From assembly GCA_027451345.1 (NCBI GenBank), contig DAIDJO010000102.1, forward strand, positions 1 through 61,805: DNA of 61,805 bases, given 5' to 3'. Made by a program: the position numbers and the translations under genes. Positions 1,447-16,719 of the stretch are shown in pieces; position 1 is the first letter of the stretch; each line of letters starts with the position of its first letter. The notes below the pieces were generated by a model that was not told the DNA's origin, ran no database searches, and was given only the letters and a program-made list of their open reading frames with translations. The DNA is from Solirubrobacterales bacterium. GTDB lineage: Bacteria; Actinomycetota; Thermoleophilia; Solirubrobacterales; Solirubrobacteraceae.

Positions 1447-1491
1447 CCCCGAACGACCGGTGGCTCACTAACCGAGGTCAGGGAGAAGGCC

Positions 1492-4260
1492 ATGGGGGAA
1501 CAGGCGGGTTTTGAGGAGGTCGACAGCGCCGGTGGACGCGACGCGCCAGTGACTTCGACCGTGCCATCGCTCGTGGCGGCCGGAGACTTCTGTCGAGCAT
1601 GCGGGGCAGATCTCGAGCCGTCTGTGGGTCGCTGTGACGCGTGTGGTGCGGCAACCGTCGGGGCCGCCGCTGACCCCCCCGGCACGGTGGGGGCCGTCTA
1701 CGAGCTGCGCCGCGGTCTGCGGAAGCGGCTGGCGGTCCGGCTCGACGACGGTGAGGACACCGCACATCTTCTGCTCACCACCGGCGAGGCGGTGAACGTC
1801 CCGGTCGCGGAACTTCCTCCCCTGGAGCAGCTGTCCCTCCGTGACGGTCCGGCCGTCGAGCCCCGCACCCGTCGTGGACGCCTGCTGCGTCTGGCTGTGG
1901 CGAGTGCGAGTGCGCAGATCAAGCCAGGCTGGGAACCCGCAGGCCTGATCGGGCGAGCGCTGGATGACCTGTCAGATCTCGGCGAAGCCCGAGGGGTCGC
2001 CGCCGACCTGCTCTCCATGGGCGGGGAAGACCTTCTCGACCGGCTGCCGTTGTCGGCGGCGGAGGTGACGTGGCTACGCGCCTACACGTGCGCGTGCAAG
2101 GGCGACCATGCTGGGACCATGCGGCATGTGGCTCAGCTGCCCGAGCGCGGTTATCGCCAGAAGCTCAATCTGATCGCACGCGTGTGGGCAGATGCAAAAT
2201 CGTCCGGCATTGACCTGAGTCCCATCCTGCGCCATCTTGCGGCGTATGGGGAGGACGAACCTCTGGCCGCACTGTTGCTCCGCAGCGAGTTTCCCGGTGC
2301 TCGACACGACGATCCGGAGACTGTGCGGGCCGGTCAGAGGGGCATAGTCGAGCGGTTGACCGCACACGGCGGACGGGGCGACCTACGAACCGCTGTGGAG
2401 GTTCTGGAGGAGCGTGACATTGATCCTGTGGTGGCCGAGTCACTACCCCAGGGCCTGCGCATCTTGGCTGCCCGCCAAATGGCCGCACCGGGGCTTCTCG
2501 GGTCTGCCGAGTTGGAACGGCTGGATCCCGCGATCCTGGATGACGTGATTGATGCCGGGTCGGTGCTACTGGGGGACGGGATCGGGTCGCGAGGGGACGA
2601 GACGTGGCGGGAGCGATACATCAGGTCTCGGGTCGCGCCAGAAAGCCTGTCCGATGCCGACGTCACAACGCTCGGTCTGGCGGATGAGGTAGCCCGCCGA
2701 GCTTTCCGTTATGGGGCGCTGGAAAAGCTGGAATCACTCGGAGACTCTCCCCGTATACGGCACTTTCGAGCGCTGCTGGATCTCCGCCAGGGCCGCGTCC
2801 GTGACGACCTGTTGGACGACGTTGAGGAACAGGATCGCGAAGCCGTAAAGGATCTCATCAGACTCGTCGAGGGCAAAGGCTCGGACCCACTCGATGAGGC
2901 GCTCGTCACAGAGCGTCTACTCGCGGACCCGACCGTGTGGTCAGTTCTCGTGGCGACCGTGGGCGCTGGACAGCTCGGCCAGCTGACCGGCATCCGCGAG
3001 ACACATCCGGCGTTCAGCGAATGGCTTTCACTACATGAGGCGCGTGAGCGACTGTTCCTCGGCGATTGGCGCGGCGCTGTTGACGCCGCTTCGCACTGCC
3101 TCGCCCTTGCGCAGGGCGAGGCAGTGCGCGACGAGGCGCACAATCTCAAAGCGTGTGGGCTGTTCTATCTGGGCAACTATCTGAGTGCGATGCAGGAGCT
3201 CACTGAGGCTCTGGAGGGCGCTTACTCTGAATCGCTGCTTGCGAACGCTAGCTTGGTTGCCGAGGGGCTATCGCCAGAATCCGCGGCCCGCCATCTTGGA
3301 ACGCTGATTCGCGAGGCGCCGACCCTTGCGATGCGCGTCGCGGCTGCGCACCGCGCCGTTCTCATCTGGCGTTCGACTGACGCTTCCCTCTGGAGAAACT
3401 CCGACGAGAGCCCGCTGCCGGATGCCTTCCAGGACGCGCTCCGCGAACTGGTCAACGAACAGATCTCGCTGGATGATTTTCGACGCTTCGCGCACGTTCT
3501 CGCCCTTTACGATGGCCAGTGGTTCTCGGATCCGTCAAACACCGCCGCCTCTCCACACAACGACACCCTCGAGGCGCGTTTCTATCGCGCCCGGACCGCA
3601 CCCGACCTCTTTCCGACAGTCGCCGTCATGGGAGAGGCGATAGCAGCTGGTGACGCTCCTGCCTGGCTGCTACATGAGCGCGACAGCCTACGGCAAGTGG
3701 CGATCGACACTCTCTTTGACGATCTGGATGCGCCTGACTCGACATTTGGTTACGTCGCCCTGGCGATGGTGGATCGCGGAGTCTTGGCGGATGACTATGA
3801 CAACTGCCTGTTCAATATGCTGGGGATCGCGTCGACGACGTATCACCTCACAGACAAAGGGACGACGGTCGGTGACGAGTTGGTGGCGCGGCTCCACGTG
3901 GCGCGTACGGCCGCGGCCAATCTCCCTGGAGACGGCCGGGGACGGATCAGAGATCTGACTGAGCTGGCAACTCGGCGTGTGGCGCTCAACCGTTACCTGC
4001 CGCTGGAGCGCGAGTTCAACCGCAGTGTTGAACTCTACAACGGCGCGTTGGATCTAGGACGCTATGAACCTCCCGGCACGCCGGCCTACCAACAGGCGCT
4101 CGCCCGCACTCGCGAAGCCCTGGCGGTCGCTCGGCAGGTTCGTGAAGCAGCGTCACCTTGGCTGCTCATCGTGGAGCATGACGGGCTTCGGACTGACTAC
4201 AAGGAGATCGTCACAGGCGCTCAAGACATTGAGCGCCGATGCCTCGAGATCCTGAGCTAA
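1492..4260 (+). CDS. large zinc-ribbon and helical-repeat protein of the Hsp70 cluster
   Basis: The 922-residue protein starts at ATG 1492 behind GGGAGAA. A zinc ribbon lies near the N terminus, with Cys34, Cys37, Cys48 and Cys51 arranged as CRAC and CDAC. A short beta-rich segment follows (about residues 68-110). The rest is almost all helical, with TPR/SEL1-like stretches such as LFLGDWRGAVDAASHCLALA and AHNLKACGLFYLGNYLSAM around residues 520-575. There is no signal peptide, no clear membrane helix and no enzyme motif. The gene opens a cluster with a J-like protein, a GrpE-like protein and Hsp70, so a scaffold or client-recruiting role is a reasonable guess. I do not recognise the full-length family. 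Confidence 0.7.
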   Translation: MGEQAGFEEVDSAGGRDAPVTSTVPSLVAAGDFCRACGADLEPSVGRCDACGAATVGAAADPPGTVGAVYELRRGLRKRLAVRLDDGEDTAHLLLTTGEAVNVPVAELPPLEQLSLRDGPAVEPRTRRGRLLRLAVASASAQIKPGWEPAGLIGRALDDLSDLGEARGVAADLLSMGGEDLLDRLPLSAAEVTWLRAYTCACKGDHAGTMRHVAQLPERGYRQKLNLIARVWADAKSSGIDLSPILRHLAAYGEDEPLAALLLRSEFPGARHDDPETVRAGQRGIVERLTAHGGRGDLRTAVEVLEERDIDPVVAESLPQGLRILAARQMAAPGLLGSAELERLDPAILDDVIDAGSVLLGDGIGSRGDETWRERYIRSRVAPESLSDADVTTLGLADEVARRAFRYGALEKLESLGDSPRIRHFRALLDLRQGRVRDDLLDDVEEQDREAVKDLIRLVEGKGSDPLDEALVTERLLADPTVWSVLVATVGAGQLGQLTGIRETHPAFSEWLSLHEARERLFLGDWRGAVDAASHCLALAQGEAVRDEAHNLKACGLFYLGNYLSAMQELTEALEGAYSESLLANASLVAEGLSPESAARHLGTLIREAPTLAMRVAAAHRAVLIWRSTDASLWRNSDESPLPDAFQDALRELVNEQISLDDFRRFAHVLALYDGQWFSDPSNTAASPHNDTLEARFYRARTAPDLFPTVAVMGEAIAAGDAPAWLLHERDSLRQVAIDTLFDDLDAPDSTFGYVALAMVDRGVLADDYDNCLFNMLGIASTTYHLTDKGTTVGDELVARLHVARTAAANLPGDGRGRIRDLTELATRRVALNRYLPLEREFNRSVELYNGALDLGRYEPPGTPAYQQALARTREALAVARQVREAASPWLLIVEHDGLRTDYKEIVTGAQDIERRCLEILS

Positions 4261-4270
4261 CGGAGACAAC

Positions 4271-4675
4271 GTGGAACGCAATCCTTATCTGATCATCGGC
4301 GTGGACTTCGCGGCGTCCGCCGAGGAGGCGAGACACGCCTTCGCACGCGCTGCCAGACGGGTACGACGCGAAGGCGGCGTATGGGCGGTCGAGGATCTCA
4401 CCTGGGCGCTCCATGAGATCGAAACCTTGGAGCAGGAGCCGGCCGACCTGGTGTCGGTGTATCGCGTGCCTGCGGATCCGACTGTCTTTGAGCCGGCGGG
4501 CGAAGGCCTGTACCGACCTCGGCCGGTACCAGCGCCTCGAGCTACTGCCCATGACGAGGAGGCGGTCGACGGGGTGCGTCGGCGCGCATCGCTGGAAGTT
4601 GACCGGCTGCTTCTCGATGAAATCGCCACCCGAGGAATCGACCTCGGCCCCCTTTACCAGGAGAGAACGTTGTGA
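4271..4675 (+). CDS. J-domain-like protein without HPD motif
   Basis: The 134-residue product starts at GTG 4271, 10 bases after the previous stop. Its first 35 residues (NPYLIIGVDFAASAEEARHA and the following helix) match helices I and II of a DnaJ domain. The HPD tripeptide that activates Hsp70 is absent; GGVWAVEDLTWALHEIE stands where it should be. The C-terminal half is charged and carries no zinc fingers. It lies directly upstream of a GrpE-like gene and an Hsp70 gene, so it is likely a specialised co-chaperone or adaptor that binds rather than stimulates the Hsp70. The J-like reading is mine, by motif. Confidence 0.6.
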   Translation: MERNPYLIIGVDFAASAEEARHAFARAARRVRREGGVWAVEDLTWALHEIETLEQEPADLVSVYRVPADPTVFEPAGEGLYRPRPVPAPRATAHDEEAVDGVRRRASLEVDRLLLDEIATRGIDLGPLYQERTL

Positions 4676-5385
4676 TGGCACGCCCACGGAAGATCGATGT
4701 TTTGCTTGCGCAGCTTGCCGCGGTGGAGCGATTGGTGGACAAGCTCGATCGACGGCTCGAGAAGATCGAGCTCGTGACCGTGGTTCGGGAGCCGGCCACG
4801 GGACTCGCAGCGGATGCCTACAACGGGCTGCGGAAGCAGGTCATAGCCGCCGTGACCGAGCGCAGTGCCCATCTCCATCAGCTCGCCCGATTCGATACGG
4901 CAGTGCGTGGTGAGGCGAGCACCGAACACCTCAGGGCCCTGGTGGGGGAGTGGCTCGCACAGGCGGAAGTCGAAGTGATCTCTGATCCCCAGTTGGAGGA
5001 CGCCTTCCAGTTCGTCGGAGAGGCGGACGGGGGTGAGGTCCAAGTCGTCCGGCCGGCCTACGTGGACCGTGCGACAGGACGAGTGATTCAGAGTGGCATC
5101 GCGGAGCGGCTGCCTGCAGGGGTTGCATCGTCCATGCCAGAGGTGGCGGTGGTGACGGAGGACCTCACACCCGGACAGGGCCTGCCGCTCGACGCCCCTG
5201 CAGTGGTTCGCGGCGCACACGGGTCCGGCCGCGACTCACCTCCCAGCATGACTCCGGAGCCGGCGGCGCACGAAGCGGTGTCGCTGTCGGTTGATCGCGG
5301 TGGCTCCGCGGACCCGGAGAGTGCGTCTCCCATCGAGACTGAGCCCGAGACTACCTCCCCGCGTGACCAGGAGCAGCCCAAGTGA
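4675..5385 (+). CDS. GrpE-like nucleotide exchange factor
   Basis: The 236-residue protein starts at ATG 4675, overlapping the previous stop as TGATG, with AGGAGAG at 4659-4665. GTG 4672 is an alternative start. It has a coiled coil (VLLAQLAAVERLVDKLDRRL) near the N terminus, a helical segment, and a beta segment (VQVVRPAYVDRATGRVIQSG, around residues 125-145) resembling the GrpE C-terminal domain. A disordered acidic/Pro-rich tail of about 70 residues follows. GrpE proteins release ADP from Hsp70. The position immediately before an Hsp70 gene that it overlaps by 4 bases supports this role. The coiled coil is shorter than in standard GrpE. Confidence 0.65.
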   Translation: MARPRKIDVLLAQLAAVERLVDKLDRRLEKIELVTVVREPATGLAADAYNGLRKQVIAAVTERSAHLHQLARFDTAVRGEASTEHLRALVGEWLAQAEVEVISDPQLEDAFQFVGEADGGEVQVVRPAYVDRATGRVIQSGIAERLPAGVASSMPEVAVVTEDLTPGQGLPLDAPAVVRGAHGSGRDSPPSMTPEPAAHEAVSLSVDRGGSADPESASPIETEPETTSPRDQEQPK

Positions 5386-7100
5386 CTTCCATCGGTATCG
5401 ACTTTGGCACCACCAATTCAGTTGTCGCCCAGCACGCCGCTGGTTCCATTGAGGTGCTGCCGATCGACGGTCCCCCGCTCGCTTGGGCCAACCTCGGGTT
5501 CGATCGAGTGCTTCCTTCGGTCCTGGGAGTCGGAACGGCCGAAGAAGCCACCTATGGCTGGGCCGCCAAGCAGCAGGCGGACAACAAGCTGGAGGCCGTC
5601 AAACGGCTCTTCGCTACCGAAGACATCGTGCGCATCGGGGACTTTGAATACTCGGTCGAGACCGCCGCGGCCCTGCTGTTCGCGCGCCTGAAGAACGGGG
5701 CTGAAGAAACCGGCGTCATGTTCGACCGCGCAGTCGTGACGGTGCCTGCGAACAGTCGGGGCCTCGCTCGCCTCAGAACGAAGCTCTGCGCAGGACTGGC
5801 TGGTATCGAAGTCGTTGCGCTGCTCAACGAACCGACGGCGGCGGCGATGGCTCATTCCCTGTCGGCGAATGTCGATCAGACCATCCTTGTTTTCGACTGG
5901 GGTGGTGGGACATTGGACGTCACCGTGTTGGAAACAGTCGCCGGCGTGTTCATCGAGCGCGCCTCCAAAGGAATCCAGCGATCCGGCGGGCTTGACCTCG
6001 ACAATCTCCTCGGCTCTGCGGTCCAAGCCCGGATCCCGGGCCACGAGGCCTGGACGGACAGGCAGCGCGCTGCGTTCAAGCTCGACATCGAGTACGCGAA
6101 GGTGCTGCTTTCGACCCAGCTCGAGGCGACGATCGAAACCCCCGGCCCCGGACAGTCGTTCACCATCACCCGCGAGCTCTTGGAGTCAGCCATCAGGCCC
6201 AAGATCGAGGAGACCCGCATGCCCATCGACCAGTGCCTGCGCGACCTTGGCATCGACGCAAGTGGGATCGACCAAGTCGTACTGGTTGGCGGAAGTTCCA
6301 AGATTCCCGCGGTGCGGACGTTTGTGAGCGAGATCCTCGGCAAGGAGCCCGTCGCGGGGGTCGACCCGATGACCGCCGTGGCGCAAGGAGCCGCAACCGC
6401 CGCCGCGATTCTCGCCGGAGAGTTGGACGCTGACTTCTTCGTCGCGACCGAGCACGCACTCGGCACCATCTCACTCAATGACGTTGGTCAGCCGCATTTC
6501 AGTGTTCTCATTGGCCGGAACCATCAGTTGCCCGCGAGGGCGGCGGGTGGCTACCAGCCAGTGAATCCTGGCCAGAAGACCGTGCTCGTACAGGTGATCG
6601 AGGGCGACCCAGACGTGCCTCTGGACGATCCAGACAACGTCGTGCTCAAAGAATGGGAGGTCGATGTCGACCCCGACCAGTCGCCACAGCAGAACGCGTT
6701 CACCATCAGCTACGAATATGACGTCGATGGGATTCTTCACGTAAACGTGACGAATGACGCCACGGGCGACCAGATGCTGCATGAAGATCTGTCGTTTGGC
6801 GTTAGCCAGGACAAAGCAGCGCTCGTCACTGTCGCGAAGTCGGTCCGCGAGACGATTGACGGCGGGCGTCTGGCCGGAGGCACCAAGGCGGCCCACTCCG
6901 ACGCCGTGGCGTCACTGGACAGTAAATCGCGTGACTCCATCGAACGTGTGCGGACGAAGATCATCCCGTTTGTGGATGACGACGAGGCCGCGCGCCTCGA
7001 GGGTATGTGCAGGGATCTCGAACATGCGGCTGGGCAGGAAGTTGATACCTGCCGTGATGCGCTCGACGCCGAGGCTCGCAAATACGCCTACCTCCTATAG
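5382..7100 (+). CDS. Hsp70 family ATPase (DnaK-like)
   Basis: The 572-residue protein starts at GTG 5382 behind AGGAG. The actin-like ATPase motifs are present: phosphate 1 GIDFGTTNS (residues 5-13), the connecting LLNEPTAAAMA, phosphate 2 FDWGGGTLDVTV (near 170) and the adenosine motif VVLVGGSSKIPAVR (near 305). A beta substrate-binding domain follows (from about 385, with LPARAAGG and ILHVNVTNDATG), then a short helical lid. It is shorter than DnaK (about 610-640) and lacks the EEVD-like or acidic tail. The genes beside it differ from a standard dnaK-grpE-dnaJ operon, so this is probably a dedicated Hsp70 for the cluster rather than the housekeeping copy. Confidence 0.9.
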   Translation: MTSIGIDFGTTNSVVAQHAAGSIEVLPIDGPPLAWANLGFDRVLPSVLGVGTAEEATYGWAAKQQADNKLEAVKRLFATEDIVRIGDFEYSVETAAALLFARLKNGAEETGVMFDRAVVTVPANSRGLARLRTKLCAGLAGIEVVALLNEPTAAAMAHSLSANVDQTILVFDWGGGTLDVTVLETVAGVFIERASKGIQRSGGLDLDNLLGSAVQARIPGHEAWTDRQRAAFKLDIEYAKVLLSTQLEATIETPGPGQSFTITRELLESAIRPKIEETRMPIDQCLRDLGIDASGIDQVVLVGGSSKIPAVRTFVSEILGKEPVAGVDPMTAVAQGAATAAAILAGELDADFFVATEHALGTISLNDVGQPHFSVLIGRNHQLPARAAGGYQPVNPGQKTVLVQVIEGDPDVPLDDPDNVVLKEWEVDVDPDQSPQQNAFTISYEYDVDGILHVNVTNDATGDQMLHEDLSFGVSQDKAALVTVAKSVRETIDGGRLAGGTKAAHSDAVASLDSKSRDSIERVRTKIIPFVDDDEAARLEGMCRDLEHAAGQEVDTCRDALDAEARKYAYLL

Positions 7101-7110
7101 CTGTTTCGCC

Positions 7111-7698
7111 ATGGCAAAGACGTTGGTTCTCATCCCCCGTCCCGCCTCGGTTCTGAGCGGTACCGAACCCATACGGCCGGGCTACCCAAAGTCCTACACC
7201 GCCGCCGATATGCGGTCATGGGCGGCCGATCTTGACCGGCTGTATCAGACCCCGATAGCTGACCTCGCTCGCTGGCGGGCGACGCCGGCGAGTCAACTGA
7301 CAAGGCAGCAGTGTGGGGTTGTGGAGGCATACGATCGCTGCTTTCTGGATCCCGCTGATGGCATCAAGGGGGACCTCCGGGACGACGGCCGTGTCGAGGT
7401 ATGGGGAGGCCGGCATCGGGCGGCATACCTCGTCGAGCGCGGAACCGACCCGGTACCGGTATGGGTGTCCCACACCGACGCAAGGCGATTGAGCGAGTTC
7501 CAGAGCCGCTGCCATGAGGATGTCGATCGCCTGTGCGGCCCGGAACTGAGGTGGAAGCTCGACCGAGTGGGGTCACGGGTGCGTGAAGCAGCGCCCCTTC
7601 CGCGCGAGGCCTGCGGGCCCACCGGGATGCTCGCCCAGCCCCGTGAGACGCCCACTCAGCTCGCGGCGCAGGCCCGCCTTCCAGAGCGGAGCCGGTGA
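7111..7698 (+). CDS. ParB/Srx-fold domain protein
   Basis: The start is ATG 7111, giving 195 residues; longer in-frame extensions only overlap Hsp70. The core VEVWGGRHRAAYLVERGTDP followed by VPVWV matches the ParB N-terminal signature (GxHRxxAAxxxG..VPV). ParB folds can bind CTP or DNA or act as nucleases. The N-terminal 90 residues are helical and the C-terminal 50 are Pro/Arg-rich. There is no helix-turn-helix DNA-binding domain, so this is not a full chromosome-partition ParB. It is coupled by a 1-base overlap to the VirD4-like ATPase. A link to DNA handling is inference. Confidence 0.55.
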   Translation: MAKTLVLIPRPASVLSGTEPIRPGYPKSYTAADMRSWAADLDRLYQTPIADLARWRATPASQLTRQQCGVVEAYDRCFLDPADGIKGDLRDDGRVEVWGGRHRAAYLVERGTDPVPVWVSHTDARRLSEFQSRCHEDVDRLCGPELRWKLDRVGSRVREAAPLPREACGPTGMLAQPRETPTQLAAQARLPERSR

Positions 7699-9224
7699 TG
7701 GGGTGGGGGTACTACAGGGCTGTGGGGAAGGCGATCGGGGTGAGCGCTCGGGCGGGTGCCCGAATGGGGCAGAGCGCGGGCACTGCGGTCATGATGCACT
7801 CGGCGGGGCGCGGAGCGCGGCGAGGATACCTCGCGCCTGGGGATCCGACGCCTCCCCCGAATGCGTCGACCGACTACCTCGACTATCGCGGTGTCGCGAC
7901 GTGGCAGGAGGTTAAGAACCTCCGTCAGGGCGACTTCCCGCTCGGCGCGTTCGCAGATCTCGGCCGTGGGACATTCAGGGATCTCGTCGGCCTTCCTTCG
8001 CCTCTGCTGAACCGACACGCCGTCGTTGTGGGGCCAGCGGGGTCGGGAAAGACGAGCAGCATCATCCTCCCCTGGATGTACGCGGCTCTCGCGGCTGGCT
8101 GGTCGGTGATCTCCGTCGACGTGAAGGGTGACCTTCGGGAGGACTTCCTCCAGTACAAACAGCAGCGCGGTGCTCCGCCGCTTGGTGCACGCCTGCGTAG
8201 CTGGGACTTCACAAGGCCGGCACGGTCGGTCGGCTGGGAATGGTTACGTGAGCTTCACGACGACGCCCGTCTGGATGCCGCAATCACCGCTATCATCGGA
8301 CGCAAGCCGGAGAAGACGACCGTTGATCCGTATTTCTATCAACGTGACTACCGGACCTTGCGAGGCCTCCTCAGCTTCTCACGCGCTGTGGCGCCGCATG
8401 TCCGAACGGCGGCCGAGCTCCTCAGCATGCTCGAGGATGACCAGCAGCTAGATCACCTTGTGGCGCAGAACTCGCGCGCTCCGGGCGCTGCGGATCTGAT
8501 GGCGGCGCTGCGTCAAACCGGCTCAGACTACGCGAAGGTCATCAGCGGTGTGGTGACAGCCCTGGCCGCGCTGGATACCCCGAATGTCAGTGCCGTGACC
8601 CGCACCGCCCGCTCCCACCGCAACCTCGACCTCGACGCGACGCTTGACGAGCATAACTGTCTCATTGTGGTGGCTCCGCTCAAGAGTGGGGAGGTGGCGG
8701 CGACGCTCTCCAGCCTGTTCCTGAGCCAGCTCGCTCAGCGTCTGTACGAGCGATTCGGCGAGACGCGACGGCCCGTGCTTCTCGTGATTGACGAGGCGGC
8801 TCAGGTGGTCAACCGAGTGGACATCGCGCAGCTGATGGAGGTCTCGCGCTCCGCAGGAGTCGGAGTTGTCGTGGCTCTCCAAGACGTGTCGAAACTCCGG
8901 GACGAAAACGACCGCTCGTCAATCCTCTCGAACGCCGCCACGTTCGCGATTCTGCCCGGAGCGAGTCCGCTCAGCGCAGCGGAGTTCCGGAAGCGCCTCG
9001 GAGACCGATACGAACGCACGATGGGACTTACGATGGGCGGACAGGGTGGCTTCGGTTATCGAGGCATACAGCACACCTACGGAACCGAGACGGTGCCGGT
9101 GCTCAGAGATCGAGAGATCATGCAGCCTCCGTTTGGCCGGAGGCCCGGGATCGTGCACGTCAAGGCGCAGGAGTTGGGCATCACACCCAAGCCGATCCTC
9201 GTCGACTTCTACTACGGGCAATGA
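7698..9224 (+). CDS. VirD4/TraG/TraD-like P-loop ATPase, apparently soluble
   Basis: The preferred start is ATG 7698 (TGATG overlap; GTG 7695 adds one residue), giving 508 residues. It carries Walker A GPAGSGKTSS near residue 113, the flanking LLNRHAVVVG strand, VISVDVKGDLREDF typical of coupling proteins, and Walker B VLLVIDEAAQVV. This is the TraM-recognition/VirD4 superfamily that pumps DNA or protein in type IV secretion. No transmembrane anchor is visible at the N terminus, and no relaxase, VirB or mating-pair gene is nearby. A role other than conjugation is therefore likely. It overlaps the vWA gene by 4 bases. Confidence 0.8.
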   Translation: MGWGYYRAVGKAIGVSARAGARMGQSAGTAVMMHSAGRGARRGYLAPGDPTPPPNASTDYLDYRGVATWQEVKNLRQGDFPLGAFADLGRGTFRDLVGLPSPLLNRHAVVVGPAGSGKTSSIILPWMYAALAAGWSVISVDVKGDLREDFLQYKQQRGAPPLGARLRSWDFTRPARSVGWEWLRELHDDARLDAAITAIIGRKPEKTTVDPYFYQRDYRTLRGLLSFSRAVAPHVRTAAELLSMLEDDQQLDHLVAQNSRAPGAADLMAALRQTGSDYAKVISGVVTALAALDTPNVSAVTRTARSHRNLDLDATLDEHNCLIVVAPLKSGEVAATLSSLFLSQLAQRLYERFGETRRPVLLVIDEAAQVVNRVDIAQLMEVSRSAGVGVVVALQDVSKLRDENDRSSILSNAATFAILPGASPLSAAEFRKRLGDRYERTMGLTMGGQGGFGYRGIQHTYGTETVPVLRDREIMQPPFGRRPGIVHVKAQELGITPKPILVDFYYGQ

Positions 9225-9892
9225 GTCAGCGAGCGACGCTGCTTCCGTTCTACGCCCTCTGCGACGTGTCCGCCTCGATGCGGCGCGACGGGCGCATCGA
9301 AGCGCTGAACGACGCGGTGCGAGCCACCTGCGACGCTGCGGCCGTCCATCCGGTCATTGCGGACCGTATTCGCTTTGGGGTGCTCGCGTTCTCCACCGTC
9401 GCTGAGGTCGTGCTGCCGCTGTGTGACGTCGGCCTGTTGGAGGACGTGCCGCCCTTAGGCCCGCGGGGCCTCACCAACTATGCGCCAGCGTTTCTTCTCA
9501 TGCGTTCGATTATTGAGAAGGACGTCTCGCAACTCGTTGCGGATGATTACCGAGTCTTTCGCCCCACGGTGTTCTTTCTCACGGACGGGCAGCCGAGCGA
9601 TCCGCAGCCGCAGTGGAAAGCGGCGCATGGCAGCCTGGTGGACCTCGACTTTCCGCACCGTCCCAACATCGTCGCCTTTGGCTTTGGAGACGCTCCGCGT
9701 CGGGTGCTGGCCGAGGTGGCGACGGTGGCCGCCTACACGGCCACGGACGCCCTCAGCGCACCGGCCGCCATCGCTGCGTTCGGCGCTGTCTTGGTTGAGA
9801 GCGTGGTGGCGTCCGGCACCGCCGGGGTGTTCTCCCTGCCGGACGCGACCTCGAGCGGCCTGGCTGCCGTTGACGATCGGGATCTGCTGTGA
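9221..9892 (+). CDS. TerY/YegL-like vWA domain protein 1
   Basis: The 223-residue, almost single-domain von Willebrand A protein starts at ATG 9221. All metal-ion (MIDAS) elements are visible: DVSAS (residues 15-19, DxSxS), a Thr in GLTNY, and the Asp in FFLTDGQPSD. It has no signal peptide, so it acts in the cytosol like TerY and E. coli YegL. In TerY-P triads such a protein works with a PP2C phosphatase and a YegI-like kinase, both encoded downstream here. It overlaps the neighbouring genes by 4 bases on each side. It is paralogous to the vWA gene at 10818. Confidence 0.85.
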   Translation: MSQRATLLPFYALCDVSASMRRDGRIEALNDAVRATCDAAAVHPVIADRIRFGVLAFSTVAEVVLPLCDVGLLEDVPPLGPRGLTNYAPAFLLMRSIIEKDVSQLVADDYRVFRPTVFFLTDGQPSDPQPQWKAAHGSLVDLDFPHRPNIVAFGFGDAPRRVLAEVATVAAYTATDALSAPAAIAAFGAVLVESVVASGTAGVFSLPDATSSGLAAVDDRDLL

Positions 9893-10788
9893 GTGAGCTG
9901 GAGGCTCCGCTGCCGGGGGAGGTGTCGCTCAGCACGATCGGACTCACCCGCGAACTTGCCCGCGGAGGGTTGGGCGTCATTCGGGAGGTCCGCCCGCGCC
10001 CTGGGCTTGGTGACCGGCCGTTGGTGTTCAAGCGCTTTCATGACCCGGCTGCCGTCGATTGGGCCGCGCTCCGGGCGTTGGTGGAGTGGAGGCGCTCGCT
10101 CAAGCAAGGCGATCGGCGGCGCGTCGACCGTGAGTTGACGTGGCCTCTCGCCGTGGTCGGGGGAGAGACGGGCCCGCTCGGATTCTTGATGTACCGAGTG
10201 TCCTCGGATTTCGAGGCATCAGTCAGAACACCCTCCGGGGGCAGCCGTTCAGTGGTGCGCGAGGCCCAATACCTGATGGTGAACTCGCCACGAGCGGCGC
10301 GCCTCGGGATCGGAGAGCCCTCGGACGCGCAACGGCTTGAGCTGATCTGGCGTCTGGTCGATCTCATCGCTTTTCTGCATGACCGCCAGATCGTCGTGGG
10401 TGATCTCTCCACCCGGAACGTTCTGTGGTCGGAGCTCGACAGTCGTATCGTTCTGGTCGACTGTGACTCGATGATCCTTGGCGGGGTCGGCTCTCCACAT
10501 CCACCGGCGGTGACCGTTGACTGGGACGATCCCGCCCTCGCGGTTCCGGCCGCGTCATCCGACATCTACAAGCTCGCACTCTTTGTCGTCCGCACCCTGG
10601 GGCGCAGCTTCCAGATCCGAAGCTCAGACGAGGTGATCGCGGCCCTCGACAGCACGGCTCGGACGCTCCTGGAGCGATCCCTGTGCAGCGATCCGGGCCA
10701 CCGCCCGCCAGCACAGGCATGGGCGGCCTGGGCCTCGGTGCGCCGCGCTGCCCGCTCCTCGCGCGCAACGGTCATCGATGCGATATAA
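9889..10788 (+). CDS. YegI-like protein kinase 1 of the TerY-P set
   Basis: The 299-residue product starts at GTG 9889 (GTGA overlap). Kinase elements are a Gly-loop LARGGLGV (residues 23-30), Lys48 in LVFKRF, the catalytic loop VVGDLSTRNVL (VGD instead of HRD, with Asp and Asn kept) and VLVDCDSM in place of DFG. These substitutions are typical of YegI-like kinases and keep the residues for Mg-ATP, so it is probably active. E. coli YegI and related proteins carry a C-terminal extension; here the C-terminal 40 residues are only an Ala/Arg helix. Targets are unknown; the vWA proteins and the downstream channel are candidates. Confidence 0.8.
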   Translation: MSELEAPLPGEVSLSTIGLTRELARGGLGVIREVRPRPGLGDRPLVFKRFHDPAAVDWAALRALVEWRRSLKQGDRRRVDRELTWPLAVVGGETGPLGFLMYRVSSDFEASVRTPSGGSRSVVREAQYLMVNSPRAARLGIGEPSDAQRLELIWRLVDLIAFLHDRQIVVGDLSTRNVLWSELDSRIVLVDCDSMILGGVGSPHPPAVTVDWDDPALAVPAASSDIYKLALFVVRTLGRSFQIRSSDEVIAALDSTARTLLERSLCSDPGHRPPAQAWAAWASVRRAARSSRATVIDAI

Positions 10789-10817
10789 GGGCAATCAACT
10801 CAGGAGACAACCGACCC

Positions 10818-11558
10818 GTGGGGGCGTTCATGGCTGATCAGCAGGGCAAAGCGAAGATCCTACCGTTCTACCTGGTGGTCGATGTCTCGTACTCGATGAC
10901 GCAGGACGGCAAAATCGATGCGGCGAATGGGATCACCAGGGAGCTGCGGAACGCGCTCGCCGAGCACCCGGTGATCGCCGACAAGGTGCGCTTCAGCGTG
11001 ATCGACTTTTCCGACGAGGCGCAGGTCCTCTTCCCGCTCGGGGACCTGAGCATGCAGAACGACGACGTCCAGTTTTCCGCCCGTGGCGGCACTTCCTATG
11101 TCGCGGCATTTCAGACGCTCCGCACCGAGATTGATCGGGACGTCAGGCAACTCAAGGCCGACGGGTTTGATGTGCACCGGCCTGCAGTCTTCTTCATCAG
11201 CGACGGCGACCCGACCGATCCTGATGGCGAATGGCAGCGGGCCTTTGCCGAGCTGACGAGCTACGACAAGACGACTAAGACCGGATTCCCGTACTACCCG
11301 AACGTCATTCCCTTTGGAGTTGGCGCCGCGCTGGGGACGCTCAAGGAGCTCATTTTCCCCAGGAACCGGAGCAAGTGCTACATGGCAAAGGACGGAGCGA
11401 ACCCAGGGGATGCCCTGCGGCAGATGGTCGAGGTTCTGGTGGCCAGCACCATGCTCTCCGGCGCCAGCGTGGGAGCGGGCGGACCGGCAATGCTCCTCCC
11501 GGATGCGGGCGACCTCGGAGACGACATTCTCGAAGCCGACTACGAGACGCTCGTATGA
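10818..11558 (+). CDS. TerY/YegL-like vWA domain protein 2
   Basis: I prefer GTG 10818 because AGGAGAC lies 9 bases upstream; ATG 10830 is the alternative and the longer frame only overlaps the kinase gene. The protein has 246 residues. MIDAS elements are DVSYS (22-26), Thr in GGTSY and Asp in FFISDGDPTD. The segment ILPFYLVVDVSYSM parallels LLPFYALCDVSASM of the first vWA protein, showing common descent. It is about 20 residues longer in the middle (TSYDKTTKTGFPYYPNVIPF). A 29-base gap after the kinase gene is the only break of this size in the second half of the operon. Confidence 0.85.
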   Translation: MGAFMADQQGKAKILPFYLVVDVSYSMTQDGKIDAANGITRELRNALAEHPVIADKVRFSVIDFSDEAQVLFPLGDLSMQNDDVQFSARGGTSYVAAFQTLRTEIDRDVRQLKADGFDVHRPAVFFISDGDPTDPDGEWQRAFAELTSYDKTTKTGFPYYPNVIPFGVGAALGTLKELIFPRNRSKCYMAKDGANPGDALRQMVEVLVASTMLSGASVGAGGPAMLLPDAGDLGDDILEADYETLV

Positions 11559-12637
11559 GCGCTGAGGAGGCGTCCTCGGCGTCCGGTACCAGAGAGGTGC
11601 CTGACTCATCGGCTGGGACATCGCCGGTCGCCTCCGCGGAACCACTCGAGCCCGAGCCCCCCACCCCACCGGACCCTGCCCCAGCGTCCTCGGTGCCGGT
11701 CACGGACGGGTCGGTGGCCGCGGAGCCAGACCAACTCGTGGGGAGCCCTGTTGGGGCCTATTCCATCGGCGAGCCCGGGAGGGCTGCCACGGAGGTCGTG
11801 CCGCGGGTCTCGGCCGACCCGTCAGATCCTGCCGACACCCAGTGCGACGGAGGCATAGCCGGAGATCTGGTGGTGCGGGCGGCCAGCTGTCGCGGGTTCG
11901 CCCACCGACATGCCCAGACGCCCCGCCAGGATGATTACGCCATATGTGCCACCGAGGGGTGGCTGATTCTGACCGTCGCCGACGGGGTCTCGGCTGGTCC
12001 CCTGTCACACCAAGCCGCGACACTCGCGTGCCGCGCGTCAGCCTCGTTCCTGCGCGATGCACTTGGGACGACCGACAACCCCACGGATGTTGACTGGCTT
12101 GAGCTGTTGGGCAACGTGGCCCGGCGCATTGTTGCCCACGGTCGTCGCGTGCTCGCGCCCGAGGGAACGCCGGCCGAAGCGATCGACGCCAAAGCGGTGG
12201 CCGCGCGAATGGCGACGACGCTCGCGATCGCCATGATCCGGATTGTTCCAACGACGTCGGGTACGCATGAAGGTGCCGTCGTGGCGCTGGGTGACACGTC
12301 CGCGTTTCTATTAAGCGAGCACGCGGGGTGGACCCCCGTGACGCCGGTCAAGAACGATGGCGCGGACATCGCGTCGAGTGCCACGGCCGCCCTACCGTAC
12401 CTTCCCCGAGATGCTCCGATCCCCGTCCCCGTGACTCTCGCCGGAGGCTCCGCGCTCATCTTGATGTCCGACGGGGTTGGTGATCCGCTTGGGCGCGGGG
12501 ATGGATGCGTCGGTGGTCACCTAGGTGCCCTATGGAGCACGCCGCCGGACCCGCTGACGTTCGCGGCGCAGGTGGGGTTTGCTCGACGGACCTTTGATGA
12601 CGACCGCACGGCTGTAGGAGTCTGGGCGCCCCGATGA
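11555..12637 (+). CDS. PP2C-type protein phosphatase of the TerY-P set
   Basis: The start is ATG 11555 (ATGA overlap with the vWA gene), giving 360 residues. The first 95 are Pro/Ser/Ala/Glu-rich and likely disordered. The PP2C domain follows: RQDDYAIC, LTVADGVSAG with the metal Asp, ALGDTSAFLL, LILMSDGVGD and the closing DDRTAVGVW. Metal-binding Asp residues are all present, so it should be an active Ser/Thr phosphatase. E. coli PphC (YegK) is the nearest described analogue. It is the only phosphatase for two kinases in this operon. Confidence 0.88.
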   Translation: MSAEEASSASGTREVPDSSAGTSPVASAEPLEPEPPTPPDPAPASSVPVTDGSVAAEPDQLVGSPVGAYSIGEPGRAATEVVPRVSADPSDPADTQCDGGIAGDLVVRAASCRGFAHRHAQTPRQDDYAICATEGWLILTVADGVSAGPLSHQAATLACRASASFLRDALGTTDNPTDVDWLELLGNVARRIVAHGRRVLAPEGTPAEAIDAKAVAARMATTLAIAMIRIVPTTSGTHEGAVVALGDTSAFLLSEHAGWTPVTPVKNDGADIASSATAALPYLPRDAPIPVPVTLAGGSALILMSDGVGDPLGRGDGCVGGHLGALWSTPPDPLTFAAQVGFARRTFDDDRTAVGVWAPR

Positions 12638-13566
12638 CGTCGCTTCAGCGCCTGCGCCGCGGGCAACTCGGACAAATCAGCCAAATCGGCAAGGGCGGCC
12701 AGGCTCGGGTTTACCTGGCCGCTGAGTTGGAGGTGCCAGACGAGCACGGTCGATTTGTCTTCAAGGAGTACAAAGATAAGAAGATCCCGATCGGGGGGCT
12801 CGATGGCATCGTCGCATTCCGGTACCGCATGGCTGATTACGATCGCGCCGTCCTCGATGTGCTCACGAACTGGCCTCTGCGGGTGGTGGAGGCCGACGAC
12901 GGCGGAACTGATGGGGTCATCATTCCGCTCATCCCCGATGACTTCTTCCATGAGATCAGACGACCTGACGGGACGCGCAAGCGCCTTCCCCGAGACGGTC
13001 AGTATCTGGCCCAGCCCGAAGAGCGCTGTACTCGCGTGGGGCTCACACCGGTTGGGTTAGGGGACCGGTATCGCCTCTGCCGTGATCTCGCGCTCGCCAT
13101 CGGGTTTCTCCATCGGCGCGATGTTTGTGTGGGTGACATCTCCTTCAACAACGTCACCTACAACCTCTCCGTCACACCGTCCGTGTACCTCGTCGACTGT
13201 GACGCATTTCGCCTGAAGGGCCAAGCGCCAGTCGTGCCCCAACTTCATACGCCAGATTGGATCCCTCCCGAAGGGGCCAAGGTGCAGTCGGCCCGGACCG
13301 ATGCGTACAAGCTGGGGCTGTTCATCCTTCGCGTGCTGGCGCCTCGGGAACTCAGCTCTCAGAACCGGGATCCTGCCTGGGCCGATCAGTCTCTTGACCC
13401 ACGAGGCCGGTATTTGCTCCGCAAGGCACTGGCGTCCGATCCGACTCGGGACCGGACCACCCCTAAGGAGTGGATGGTGTACTTCACTGATGCCCTGAAG
13501 CGCAACGCGTTGGCCACCACCCGATGCACGAGTCGAATGCCCCCAAAACCGGTTGAGGCCGCATGA
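12634..13566 (+). CDS. YegI-like protein kinase 2 of the TerY-P set
   Basis: The 310-residue kinase starts at ATG 12634 (4-base overlap with the phosphatase). Elements: Gly-loop IGKGGQARVY (18-27), Lys44 in FVFKEY, catalytic loop VCVGDISFNNV, and LVDCDAFRL replacing DFG. The later WIPPEG (APE-like) and TDAYKLGLFI segments resemble kinase subdomains VIII and IX. It is clearly related to the kinase at 9889 but diverged. There is no transmembrane segment. Phosphorylation of the adjacent ion channel or of the vWA partners is a testable inference. Confidence 0.82.
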   Translation: MTSLQRLRRGQLGQISQIGKGGQARVYLAAELEVPDEHGRFVFKEYKDKKIPIGGLDGIVAFRYRMADYDRAVLDVLTNWPLRVVEADDGGTDGVIIPLIPDDFFHEIRRPDGTRKRLPRDGQYLAQPEERCTRVGLTPVGLGDRYRLCRDLALAIGFLHRRDVCVGDISFNNVTYNLSVTPSVYLVDCDAFRLKGQAPVVPQLHTPDWIPPEGAKVQSARTDAYKLGLFILRVLAPRELSSQNRDPAWADQSLDPRGRYLLRKALASDPTRDRTTPKEWMVYFTDALKRNALATTRCTSRMPPKPVEAA

Positions 13567-13609
13567 AATCGGCTGTACTCACGCCAACGGGTCCCTGACG
13601 AGGTCGTTC

Positions 13610-15529
13610 GTGGGGGGCAGGGCACGGAAAGCACGGGGTGGGCGCCCAGTGGAGTCACTTGCTACCCACGCCCGGTGGGCGGTCGACAGGTTCGTCTCCA
13701 AAGGCTCGGGCGCTGTGATCGTCGCGGCGTGCTTGCTCGTGTTGATCACAAGCGCGGGTGCGGGCCTTCTCACGACGTGGGTCAGTTCGGGCAGCATCGC
13801 GAACTCGTCCTGGAGTGATTTCGCCATTCTGCTGGGCGGGCCCGGGGTGACTCAGTCTGGGGCGTGGGTCCTTCGGCTCATAAGCCTGGTGATGGTGCTG
13901 GTAGGGATCGTCTTCGTCTCGCTCGTCATCGGCCTGGTCGTCACCGCCCTGCAGGACAGCATCGACCGAGTCCGCAACGGCTCCCCGCCCTTGCGCGACG
14001 TCCCCGATCTGGCGATCCTCGGCTGGTCGGATCAGCTCTTCACCCTGTTGCGGGAGTTCTCGGTTGCGGCGGACGGACGCTACGCGGCGGTGTTGAGCGC
14101 CCATCCACGCGCCTGGATGGAAGCCCAGATACGGCGGGAGTGCGGTGATCTCGGGGGCCGTCTGCGGGTCGACTGCCGCACGGCGGACCGCTCGGATCCG
14201 CGCGATCTGGAGCTCATCAGAATCGCCGACGTATCACGCATCGTGGTGTTCGGTGAGCCACAGGATCGCGACGATGCCGCAGTCGTCAAATCCGTTTTTG
14301 CGACGGTGACGGCCAGCGGCCGCTCACACGACCACCTGCTCATAGCTGAGGTGTGCGGGCAGGCAGTGACCCGCTCACTTGCCGATGTGTTCGACCGGCG
14401 CCTCGTGACGGTGGACAGCAACGAGCTTCTGGCCCTCGTCATGGCGCAGGCCATGAGAGACCAGGGGATGGGCCAGGTGATCGATCAGCTCACGTCCTAC
14501 CGGGGCTGTGAGTTCTACGACCACCCCGTCTCCGCGGCATTCGTCGGCCGCACCTTCGGGGAACTTGTGTGGGGGACTCTCAGCGCTTCTCCGGTGGGTA
14601 TTCAGCGCGAAGGGCGCGTCATCGTGCTGCCTCGGCCCGACATGGAGGTGCTTTCTGGTGATGCTGTGGTCGTCGTGGATCAACAGCGTCGAGACCTGGT
14701 GTTTGAGGCGACCTCGGCGCTGACCGTCCAGTCACCGATGGGGTTCCCGTCTGAGCCGGAGTGGTCCTCTCAGCGGATTCTGGTCATCGGCTGGAACACG
14801 ATCGTCCGTCGTGCGGTCGAGCACCTGCGCGGATTCCTCGGACCTGATTCCTCAGTGACGGTATGGGCGGACACGAGCTCGCTCAGTGAGGGCGAGGCGG
14901 CATCGTTGGCTGCCTGCGAGGCGGTCGACGACAGTGATCTGTTCGAGTCGGCGCCCGAGCTTCTCTCCCGGGCGTCAGCGGAGCTCGCCGCCATCGGCCC
15001 GGATGCCGTCGCCATCGTGCCGTACCGCGCTCTGCTTCAACCCTCCCAGGCGGACGCGACGACGCTCGTCGTCCTCACCACGGTTCGGGCCGCTCTTGAA
15101 ACGCGGCAAACGCGCGTGGTCAGCGAGCTTCGGGAGACCCGGGCGGCAAGCCTCACCGCCTTGGTGGGGCCCGACGACCTTGTGTTGTCCGACGCGGTGA
15201 CAGCCTCGACCATCGCCCAGTTGGCTGATCGACCGTGGCTGGACGGCGTCCTGGCCGATCTGCTCGACTGGCGGGGCTCGGCATTCTTCATCCGGGCCGT
15301 CCCCGACGAGCTCCGGAGCGGCGAGCCGTGGACGTACCTCATGATTCGGCGGTGGTTCTTGGCGCGTGGCGATCTCGTCATCGGCTTGCGGGTCGGAACC
15401 GTCGTGAACCTCAACCCAGACGCTCACGAGCCGGTCGAGAGTGACGGTCTCACAGGCGTGATCGTGGTCGGCGCGGCCGTGGGCTGGAAGACCGGCAACG
15501 TCGAAAGCCGCATGGCGGACGTGCTATGA
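13610..15529 (+). CDS. CASTOR/POLLUX-related ion channel with two RCK-like domains
   Basis: The start is uncertain: GTG 13610 has GAGG 6 bases upstream; TTG 13553 and GTG 13649 are alternatives. From 13610 the product has 639 residues. Two membrane helices (LLVLITSAGAGLL and LISLVMVLVGIVFVSLVIGL) flank a possible pore segment. Then come two Rossmann-like RCK domains, each opening with a signature strand: LAILGWSDQLFTLLREF and ILVIGWNTIVRRAVEHL. The ILGWSDxL motif is characteristic of the CASTOR/POLLUX/DMI1 family, cation channels of plants with bacterial relatives. Such RCK domains bind ions or nucleotides to gate the pore. It is followed by NhaA with a 4-base overlap. Confidence 0.8.
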   Translation: MGGRARKARGGRPVESLATHARWAVDRFVSKGSGAVIVAACLLVLITSAGAGLLTTWVSSGSIANSSWSDFAILLGGPGVTQSGAWVLRLISLVMVLVGIVFVSLVIGLVVTALQDSIDRVRNGSPPLRDVPDLAILGWSDQLFTLLREFSVAADGRYAAVLSAHPRAWMEAQIRRECGDLGGRLRVDCRTADRSDPRDLELIRIADVSRIVVFGEPQDRDDAAVVKSVFATVTASGRSHDHLLIAEVCGQAVTRSLADVFDRRLVTVDSNELLALVMAQAMRDQGMGQVIDQLTSYRGCEFYDHPVSAAFVGRTFGELVWGTLSASPVGIQREGRVIVLPRPDMEVLSGDAVVVVDQQRRDLVFEATSALTVQSPMGFPSEPEWSSQRILVIGWNTIVRRAVEHLRGFLGPDSSVTVWADTSSLSEGEAASLAACEAVDDSDLFESAPELLSRASAELAAIGPDAVAIVPYRALLQPSQADATTLVVLTTVRAALETRQTRVVSELRETRAASLTALVGPDDLVLSDAVTASTIAQLADRPWLDGVLADLLDWRGSAFFIRAVPDELRSGEPWTYLMIRRWFLARGDLVIGLRVGTVVNLNPDAHEPVESDGLTGVIVVGAAVGWKTGNVESRMADVL

Positions 15530-16719
15530 GGATGGCGCTGGGTGCGCTTCGATTGAACCGGACCGCGGGTTGGCTGGTTGCCGATTCAAGCCGGCTGATG
15601 ATCGCGGCGGGGATTCTCGCGCTGGTCATAGCGAATGCCATCCCTGGACTCCGCCTGCAGAGCCTGTGGACCGCTGGTTTCACTCTGGACCTGGACGGGG
15701 CGCACGCCCGAGTCGACTTGAGCAACGTCATCGTCAACGGGCTCATGACCGTGTTCTTCCTGTGCGTTGGCATCGAGATCCGACGAGAGATCGCCGTCGG
15801 CGCGCTGCGCAGCGTGCGGACCGCAATCGCCCCAGTTCTCTGCGCACTCGGTGGGATGCTCGTGCCGATGGGGCTCTATGTGCTCCTCGCTGGACACGGT
15901 AGATCGAGCTCGGGTTGGGCGGTCCCATGCGCCACCGACATTGCGTTGGCCGTGGGAGTGGCGGGCATCGTGGCTCCCGGCCTCTCGGCCGGAGCGCGTG
16001 CGTTCCTGCTCACTCTCGCGGTGGCGGACGATCTCGGCGGGATCGCCGTGATCGGGATCTGGTACTCCCACGGGATCTCGCTGCTCCCGGCGGCAGCTTC
16101 CCTGGCGTGTGCCGTGCTGTTTGCGGGCACGCTCTATCTCGGTATGTGGCCTCTGCCGTTCGGGCTCATCTTGCTCGTTCCTGCGTGGCTGCTGATGTGG
16201 CGGGGCCATGTCGAACCGCCCATCGTGGGGGCGCTGTTCGGGATAGTGACGCCGGTCGCGGTCGGCAGGCACGGAACCAACGTCCGTGTCCAAGCCGAAC
16301 GATTCCTAGCGCGGCTGAGTCCGATCGTTGGCTTGGTCATTCTGCCCGCGTTTGCCGCGATCAGTGCGACGGTACCGATTTCTCTCGGCGCGGCCGTCTC
16401 GACCACAGCGATCGGAGTCGCAGTCGGACTGTTCCTCGGAAAGCCGCTGGGCATCTTCGGGACCCTCAAGCTCATCACGAGAACGGGACTCGCCCGTCAT
16501 CCGGACGCGACGACAGACAGGGATCTTCTCGGCGTGAGCATGTTGGGTGGTGTCGGCTTCACCGTCTCGCTATTCATTGCGCGCGTCGGCCTTCCGAGCG
16601 GTGGGCTGCGCGCGGGCGCAACCTTGGGCGTCTTCGCTGGGAGCCTGGTGGCTGGACTTGGGAGCGCCCTCTACTTCCGCGTCGCCGTCCGCCGGGACGG
16701 CCTGCCAGTGGCTACCTGA
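15526..16719 (+). CDS. nhaA: Na+/H+ antiporter NhaA
   Basis: The 397-residue membrane protein starts at ATG 15526 (ATGA overlap). NhaA signatures: ATDIALAVGV (the conserved Asp of TM IV), LAVADDLGGIAVI (the paired ion-binding Asp residues of TM V) and GFTVSLFIA near the C terminus. About 11-12 hydrophobic segments are seen. NhaA exports Na+ in exchange for protons and is activated at alkaline pH. Its location at the end of an Hsp70/TerY-P/ion-channel operon ties the cluster to cation homeostasis. Confidence 0.93.
   Translation: MRMALGALRLNRTAGWLVADSSRLMIAAGILALVIANAIPGLRLQSLWTAGFTLDLDGAHARVDLSNVIVNGLMTVFFLCVGIEIRREIAVGALRSVRTAIAPVLCALGGMLVPMGLYVLLAGHGRSSSGWAVPCATDIALAVGVAGIVAPGLSAGARAFLLTLAVADDLGGIAVIGIWYSHGISLLPAAASLACAVLFAGTLYLGMWPLPFGLILLVPAWLLMWRGHVEPPIVGALFGIVTPVAVGRHGTNVRVQAERFLARLSPIVGLVILPAFAAISATVPISLGAAVSTTAIGVAVGLFLGKPLGIFGTLKLITRTGLARHPDATTDRDLLGVSMLGGVGFTVSLFIARVGLPSGGLRAGATLGVFAGSLVAGLGSALYFRVAVRRDGLPVAT

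What the first reader, a model, noticed from the sequence alone, without database searches (positions are those of the whole stretch)
1492..16719. Chaperone + DNA-pump + TerY-P phospho-switch + ion-channel cluster in one transcript
Thirteen genes in one direction, mostly with 4-base overlaps, combine a zinc-ribbon repeat protein, a J-like protein, GrpE-like, Hsp70, a ParB-like protein, a VirD4-like ATPase, two vWA proteins, two YegI-like kinases, one PP2C phosphatase, a CASTOR/POLLUX-type channel and NhaA. TerY-P triads are known, and Hsp70 sets are known. This joint architecture is not one I know. A working model: the Hsp70 set and repeat protein sense damage or foreign protein, the kinases and phosphatase relay this through the vWA proteins, and the channel and antiporter change ion balance. 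It may be a stress-response or defence system.
Basis: partly seen in the sequence, partly recalled or inferred. Interest (0 to 1): 0.88.

Follow-up and report, generated by a model that had tools for sequence, protein, structure and literature searches.

The report
TerY-P kinase switch with DNA pump
A bacterial operon joins a known phospho-switch (kinases, phosphatase, vWA proteins) to a DNA-pump ATPase, a pairing that recurs in a few other bacteria and looks like an immune or conflict system, while the chaperone and ion-channel genes in the same run have so far been seen with it only here.

Summary
The thirteen-gene run exists (8 of 12 joins are 4-base overlaps), but it is three modules of unequal support.

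(1) g5-g11 (ParB-like, VirD4-like ATPase, vWA, kinase, vWA, PP2C, kinase): a TerY-P phospho-switch beside a soluble VirD4-like ATPase. All 4 close relatives of the ATPase found elsewhere lie beside a vWA, kinase or PP2C gene; one keeps the ParB-like gene. None of 7 weaker VirD4-type places showed one, with a less sensitive test.

(2) Hsp70 with a zinc-ribbon protein: the Hsp70 is certain; "J-like" and "GrpE-like" have no profile support. None of 13 other TerY-P loci held an Hsp70 in the DNA fetched.

(3) CASTOR/POLLUX channel and NhaA: correctly named, but 0 of 8 channel relatives lay near TerY-P, NhaA or Hsp70.

Nearest in print: GAP1-N2 conflict systems with an Hsp70/GrpE theme or a kinase-PP2C-vWA theme (PMC7159879), and Type III-A CoCoNuTs with duplicated TerY vWAs around FtsK/HerA-type and other ATPases (PMC11090510). 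The window merges these without GAP1, DO-GTPase or McrB. A phospho-gated DNA-translocase conflict system is likeliest; its effector is unknown. New variant of a known kind.

The parts
955..1344 (+). small CesT/Tir-chaperone-like ORF upstream; probably outside the operon (147-base gap with a hairpin)
   Evidence: Pfam CesT_Tir_1 2e-4, below its cut-off; gap; hairpin
1357..1382 (.). inverted repeat, 11-bp stem, between the small ORF and g1; terminator-like but no T run follows
   Evidence: fold of 1345-1400, -28.9 kcal/mol
1419..1446 (+). possible promoter TTGCGA-N16-TAGGCT upstream of g1 (by eye)
   Evidence: sequence read directly; no promoter scan was run
1492..4260 (+). g1, 922 aa, N-terminal zinc ribbon (two CxxC) and long soluble region of unknown fold
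   Evidence: no match at 1e-5 in 27 other genomes of the genus
4271..4675 (+). g2, 134 aa, J-like by eye only, no HPD
   Evidence: no profile support
4672..5385 (+). g3, 237 aa, GrpE-like by eye only
   Evidence: no profile support
5382..7100 (+). g4, Hsp70 with the three nucleotide-binding motifs searched for
   Evidence: Pfam HSP70 4.2e-67; motifs
7111..7698 (+). g5, ParB-like protein (GRHR motif), end overlapped by the VirD4-like gene
   Evidence: 27% identical to L012:3709-4269, which has the same position before the ATPase gene
7695..9224 (+). g6, VirD4-like ATPase, Walker A and B present, no N-terminal membrane segment
9221..9892 (+). g7, TerY-like vWA, MIDAS D.S.S / T / D present
9889..10788 (+). 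g8, TerY-P-type protein kinase, catalytic residues kept
10830..11558 (+). g9, TerY-like vWA, 40% identical to g7
11555..12637 (+). g10, PP2C phosphatase
   Evidence: Pfam PP2C_2 1.1e-20
12634..13566 (+). g11, TerY-P-type protein kinase, 33% identical to g8
13610..15529 (+). g12, CASTOR/POLLUX-type channel, two strongly hydrophobic segments
15526..16719 (+). g13, NhaA Na+/H+ antiporter
   Evidence: Pfam 2.4e-86

Best explanation
The heart of the block is a TerY-P phosphorylation switch that controls a soluble DNA-translocating ATPase. Proposed working: the ParB-like protein g5 binds or marks DNA; the VirD4-like hexamer g6 loads there and translocates DNA; the two vWA proteins g7 and g9 act as metal-dependent adaptors that hold the complex; kinases g8 and g11 and phosphatase g10 set the threshold at which it is assembled or released. 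In this genome a private Hsp70 (g4), with g1 to g3, probably remodels or holds that complex, or handles foreign proteins. The likeliest purpose is conflict with phages or other foreign DNA. Shown: gene order, families, catalytic and metal-binding residues, and recurrence of TerY-P-type genes next to this ATPase. Inferred: every functional step, the defence role and co-transcription. The channel and antiporter are best taken as co-transcribed passengers or a local effector/ion-balance addition. The effector is not identified.
For: All 4 close relatives of g6 outside the window lie beside a vWA, kinase or PP2C gene. G149/L004: vWA then ATPase. G550/L010: kinase then ATPase. G551: vWA-PP2C-ParB-like-ATPase on L012 and ATPase-kinase-vWA on L021, two contigs of one genome that carry profile positions 2-290 and 293-499. 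G769/L032: ATPase divergent from vWA-PP2C-kinase. Control: 7 weaker VirD4-type places from the same class search (about 1.5 kb each side; 18 kb for one) and 5 weak matches of G551 gave no hit with block proteins other than g6 (1e-3) or with kinase, vWA and PP2C profiles (0.01). TerY family: g7, g9 and g10 match the vWA and PP2C genes of a ter locus beside TerD (L077), g7 and g9 those of a second (L079). Published analogues: PMC11090510 sections 9 (part 1) and 10, PMC7159879 section 29.
Against: The control is less sensitive than the positive finding. The same profiles recover L010, L012 and L021 but miss the L004 vWA and the L032 triad, which only Pfam showed; Pfam was not run on the control flanks. 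In L004 only one vWA is seen, in L010 only one kinase. No nuclease or other toxin-like protein recognised in the block. PADLOC hits are unspecific: mad8 also matches an ATPase of a conjugation-like region and a cyanobacterial one, and mad6/PD-T4-6 match an ordinary kinase far better. Only one relative keeps the ParB-like gene, and its identity is weak. The Hsp70 set is not seen with any other TerY-P locus (0 of 13), though several of those loci are short.
Confidence: 0.42

Rival explanations
1. Three unrelated neighbours in one transcript: an Hsp70 module, a TerY-P/VirD4 module, and an ion-transport module (CASTOR, NhaA), brought together by lateral transfer and sharing only a promoter.
For: Only the middle part recurs. 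CASTOR relatives: 0 of 8 beside TerY-P, NhaA or Hsp70. A cation exchanger of like GC3 follows on the other strand (16856-17986), so the ion genes may form their own cluster. Block GC3 is 0.69-0.80, against 0.85-0.92 in 6 of 7 further right-flank ORFs tested.
Against: 8 of 12 joins overlap by 4 bases, including g2/g3, g3/g4 and g12/g13. Hsp70/GrpE and kinase-PP2C-vWA are both known themes of one class of conflict systems (PMC7159879).
Confidence: 0.36
2. A derived GAP1-N2 type conflict system that lost GAP1 and the DO-GTPase and merged its Hsp70 theme with its kinase-PP2C-vWA theme.
For: Both themes are described for actinobacterial GAP1-N2 systems. A relative of the same genus, G149, has an Hsp70-type one: GAP1-N2, GAP1-M, DO-GTPase2, fn3, three Hsp70, GrpE.
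Against: No GAP1-N2 match in the held part of G000. g3 does not resemble the GrpE of that system (E 1.6), and g4 is only about 30% identical to its Hsp70s. The source calls the themes non-overlapping.
Confidence: 0.12
3. Remnant of a conjugative or integrative element: VirD4-like coupling protein and ParB-like protein serve DNA transfer, TerY-P is cargo.
For: g6 belongs to the VirD4 superfamily (NCBIfam CD1115-type VirD4-like 4.6e-28, below its cut-off); composition suggests a foreign island.
Against: g6 has no N-terminal membrane segment; no relaxase or VirB4 family among the 13 proteins above cut-off. Close relatives sit with TerY-P-type genes. No g6 match in 72,556 plasmids (E<=1e-15) or 50,697 phages (E<=1e-8), although the L004 relative has one distant plasmid match.
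Confidence: 0.1

Closest known systems
TerY-P triad (vWA, PP2C, kinase) of ter and defence loci
   Same: vWA with MIDAS, PP2C and kinase in one operon; g7, g9 and g10 match ter-locus proteins
   Different: two vWA and two kinases; no TerD family among the 13 proteins and no zinc-ribbon-fused kinase; coupled to VirD4-like and ParB-like genes and an Hsp70
Type III-A CoCoNuT extended operons (PMC11090510)
   Same: duplicated TerY vWA around an ATPase (FtsK/HerA superfamily in two of three variants), kinase and PP2C; Hsp70-like and helical-repeat domains occur in the wider CoCoNuT class (passages)
   Different: no McrB or McrC family among the 13 proteins; ATPase is VirD4-like, not EccE3-VirB4-like, EssC-like or SpoVK-like
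GAP1-N2 GTPase-centric conflict systems (PMC7159879)
   Same: Hsp70/GrpE theme and kinase-PP2C-vWA theme both exist there in actinobacteria
   Different: window has no GAP1 or DO-GTPase, and combines two themes the authors call non-overlapping
MADS anti-phage system (Mad6 kinase, Mad8 ATPase; system recalled, paper not held)
   Same: kinase plus an ATPase that matches the mad8 model (1.5e-15)
   Different: mad8 and mad6 hits are unspecific; no methyltransferase family among the 13 proteins

Membership tests
TerY-P triad | vWA with intact MIDAS (DxSxS..T..D) | tested here: met
   g7 and g9
TerY-P triad | PP2C phosphatase in the operon | tested here: met
   g10, Pfam 1.1e-20
TerY-P triad | protein kinase in the operon, catalytic residues kept | tested here: met
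   g8 and g11: VGD(L/I)S..N, VDCD, VFK; Pfam score below cut-off
TerY-P triad | kinase fused to a C-terminal zinc ribbon (as in CoCoNuTs) | tested here: not met
   no ribbon family in g8 or g11; other triads carry an OB fold instead (PMC11090510), so not a universal requirement
CoCoNuT | McrB-like GTPase and McrC homologue | tested here: not met
   none in the 13 proteins by Pfam
GAP1-N2 system | GAP1-N2 protein | tested here: not met
   PF20013: no match at E<=1e-5 in G000 (85% complete)
GAP1-N2 system | DO-GTPase | tested here: not met
   no DO-GTPase in the 13 proteins; rest of the genome not searched for it
Conjugative coupling protein (VirD4/TraG) | N-terminal membrane anchor | tested here: not met
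   the only hydropathy peak above 1.6 in g6 is at residue 123, just after Walker A at 113-120
Conjugative coupling protein (VirD4/TraG) | neighbouring relaxase or T4SS genes | tested here: not met
   none among the 13 proteins; the rest of the window was only sampled
Complete Hsp70 machine | J protein with HPD and GrpE beside Hsp70 | tested here: not met
   no HPD in g2; no DnaJ or GrpE family at E<=0.5; divergent versions not excluded
MADS | specific mad6 and mad8 homologues | tested here: inconclusive
   g6 is the best mad8 match seen, but an ATPase of a conjugation-like region and a cyanobacterial one also match
Anti-phage defence system | protection against phage | not testable with these tools
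   needs an experiment

The most novel reading that the evidence does not exclude
A stand-alone immune machine in which a dedicated Hsp70 set and a zinc-ribbon repeat protein load or unload a TerY-P-gated, ParB-guided VirD4-type DNA pump, with a CASTOR-type channel and NhaA as the ion-flux output: phosphorylation, chaperone, DNA translocation and membrane ion flow joined in one operon.
Probability: 0.12. Interest if true: 0.8.

Novelty: new variant of a known kind. Interest (0 to 1): 0.5.

Why it matters
TerY-P switches occur in many loci, yet what they control is, to my knowledge, largely unknown. A recurring pairing with one soluble VirD4-like ATPase, and sometimes a ParB-like protein, names a concrete client (a DNA translocase) and makes the question testable in a compact seven-gene unit. 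The window also shows that the chaperone theme and the kinase-PP2C-vWA theme, reported as non-overlapping in GAP1-N2 systems, can share one operon without the GTPase core.

Tried and rejected
MADS membership: rejected as unproven, because the mad8 and mad6 models also match control proteins. GAP1-N2 or CoCoNuT membership: rejected, defining parts not found. Conjugation: held unlikely on the missing membrane anchor and on the neighbourhoods.

Led nowhere: plasmid and phage searches with g6, and plasmid searches with g1 and g3 (no match); viral contig scans with g6 and A2. Hsp70 relatives: none in 298 other genomes of the class at 1e-85 (probably too strict); 9 of 245 others of the phylum matched at 1e-58, with open frames of 613-636 aa, which I take for ordinary DnaK; three plasmid records annotated dnaK at 1e-40. 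Structure models of g2 and g3 were too poor to search. Literature searches for MADS found no paper held. No attachment repeats around the block were recognised. The genome-contig scan used two N-terminal patterns only and may have missed relatives. The large genome searches scored only the 3 to 8 best first-look candidates per genome, so their misses are not firm.

Literature basis: PMC11090510, section 10 whole, section 9 part 1 of 2, and passages; PMC7159879, section 29 whole and passages. Other papers were seen only as search listings. That the joint Hsp70 + TerY-P + VirD4 architecture is not in print rests in an open-licence library; Anantharaman et al. 2012, the key TerY-P paper, was not read (known through citations).
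Full report
WHAT IS THERE. A same-genus genome, G149, holds a 14,647-base contig that appears to be the one titled 'Actinomycetes bacterium isolate WY1.bin120', so the host is an actinomycete. Thirteen same-strand ORFs fill 1492-16719. Eight of twelve joins are 4-base overlaps, the rest +10, +10, +41 and +43. A hairpin separates a small upstream ORF from g1, and a promoter-like pair lies at 1419-1446 (by eye). GC3 of the block genes is 0.69-0.80. Of seven right-flank ORFs other than the adjacent exchanger, six are 0.85-0.92 and one 0.69. The flanking AlkZ gene was found in 6 of 10 genus relatives searched. In the stretches taken around it no block gene matched at 1e-10. Two of the six stretches were only 2.5-3.5 kb, and only in G149 does the gene beside AlkZ also match, so only that one is a fair comparison of the site. 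The block is probably an acquired island, on composition and on one empty site.

FAMILIES. Firm: Hsp70, VirD4-like ATPase, two vWA, PP2C, CASTOR/POLLUX, NhaA. Good from residues and context: two kinases. Weak: zinc ribbon of g1, ParB-like g5. Unsupported: J-like and GrpE-like. g7 and g9 are 40% identical, g8 and g11 33%, so the doubled vWA and kinase look like duplications.

THE CORE RECURS. Close relatives of g6 were sought in 151 genomes of the order (2 with a match, own included), 396 of the phylum (own only), 399 of the class by profile (7 at 1e-20, of which own, G149 and G769 are far stronger), and the 84,980 species genomes by two short patterns (3 loci, one of them G149's). That gives four independent close relatives, all beside TerY-P-type genes: L004 (vWA), L010 (kinase), L012+L021 (vWA, PP2C, ParB-like, ATPase; kinase, vWA) and L032 (divergent vWA-PP2C-kinase, then DUF4407 and a weakly TPR-matching protein that looks like a STAND NTPase by eye). 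The vWA of L004, the triad of L032 and the PP2C of L012 were recognised by Pfam and not by tblastn with block proteins.

CONTROL AND ITS LIMIT. Seven weaker VirD4-type places (G227, three in G626, G720, two in G066) were tested in about 1.5 kb each side, or 18 kb for one of them. None had a hit with block proteins other than g6. The one read more widely (L033) lies, by eye, among a second pumping-ATPase-like ORF, membrane proteins and a recombinase-like ORF. Five of the eleven weak matches in G551 had loci; none had a hit. Profiles for kinase, vWA and PP2C built without the relatives of g6 also found nothing in these loci. The same profiles recover L010, L012 and L021 but not L004 or L032, and Pfam was not run on the control flanks. 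So the specificity of the pairing is suggested, not proven.

TERY-P IDENTITY. g9 matched 1252 plasmid records. In the two ter-bearing plasmids opened, the match lies beside TerD, PP2C and a kinase-like gene; g7, g9 and g10 also match L077 directly, g7 and g9 match L079. g11 matched four actinobacterial plasmids; L006, L007 and L008 carry a PP2C next to the kinase, and L007 and L008 also a vWA.

THE CHAPERONE PART DOES NOT RECUR SO FAR. Thirteen other TerY-P loci, some recognised from one gene only (L004, L005, L006, L007, L008, L010, L012+L021, L032, L039, L040, L077, L078, L079), gave no Hsp70 hit at 1e-4 with g4. Lengths range from 7.9 to 30.8 kb, and the L012 and L021 contigs are 5.1 and 3.8 kb, so distant partners could be missed. 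g1 had no match at 1e-5 in 27 other genomes of the genus. No near relative of g4 came from 298 class genomes at 1e-85 or 245 phylum genomes at 1e-58, except nine DnaK-like proteins.

THE ION PART DOES NOT RECUR. Eight CASTOR relatives (three genomes of the order, five plasmid records) had no g13, Hsp70 or TerY-P hit in their 13-19 kb stretches. Of 58 relatives searched, own included, 4 have g12-like genes at 1e-20, none of them another genome of the genus.

WHAT IS KNOWN. PMC7159879 (section 29 read) describes GAP1-N2 conflict systems with three non-overlapping themes. One has Hsp70 with GrpE and DnaJ/TPR partners; one, in actinobacteria, has an active kinase, PP2C and a lone vWA. G149 holds a clear Hsp70-type member: GAP1-N2/M, two DO-GTPase2 (one below cut-off), fn3, three Hsp70, GrpE. 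PMC11090510 (section 10 and part of 9; [quoted passage not shown] The window fits that idea without McrBC. So the parts are known kinds; the VirD4/ParB-like client and the joint operon with an Hsp70 are, as far as these searches show, new.

HOW IT PROBABLY WORKS. Inferred: kinases and phosphatase set the phosphorylation state of the vWA adaptors, which gate assembly of the VirD4-like translocase on DNA chosen by the ParB-like protein. The private Hsp70 may load or dissolve the complex. No effector is identified, and the channel and antiporter are more likely passengers. A defence or conflict role is favoured by family context only.

VERDICT. Real gene run, partly over-named. One recurring core on a small sample, two accessory parts seen only here. 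Interest 0.5.

Noticed in passing
window 39466-41388 (+): Reverse transcriptase-like ORF, 640 aa: RVT_1 3.4e-15, PADLOC RT_other 5e-168 and retron-type RT_outgroup 8e-159. A possible retron or defence RT in the same window.
   Followed up: partly
window 36733-38625 (+): 630-aa ORF without Pfam match at 1e-5 and with low GC3 (0.69) in an otherwise GC3-rich flank; may not be a gene.
   Followed up: no
window 16856-17986 (-): Na/Ca-exchanger family gene, convergent with NhaA, with the block's GC3 (0.79); with g12 and g13 it may form a separate ion-transport cluster.
   Followed up: partly
L051 (G149:C197) 402-14658: Hsp70-type GAP1-N2 conflict system in a genome of the same genus: three Hsp70, GrpE, fn3 protein, two DO-GTPase2, GAP1.
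   Followed up: partly
[not shown]
   Followed up: no
L040 (G137:C266) 247-9131: vWA-PP2C-kinase triad downstream of an 1833-aa ORF that looks like a helicase by eye.
   Followed up: no
L021 1-1487 and L012 733-1989: Several small proteins beginning with a zinc-knuckle-like motif (C..D..HV.PPHN.TCPWC) near the TerY-P genes of one genome.
   Followed up: no
L009 8207-13425 (Crinalium plasmid): Distant VirD4-like gene next to genes annotated ThiF-family, E2 and Mov34/MPN/PAD-1, a ubiquitin-like conjugation set.
   Followed up: no
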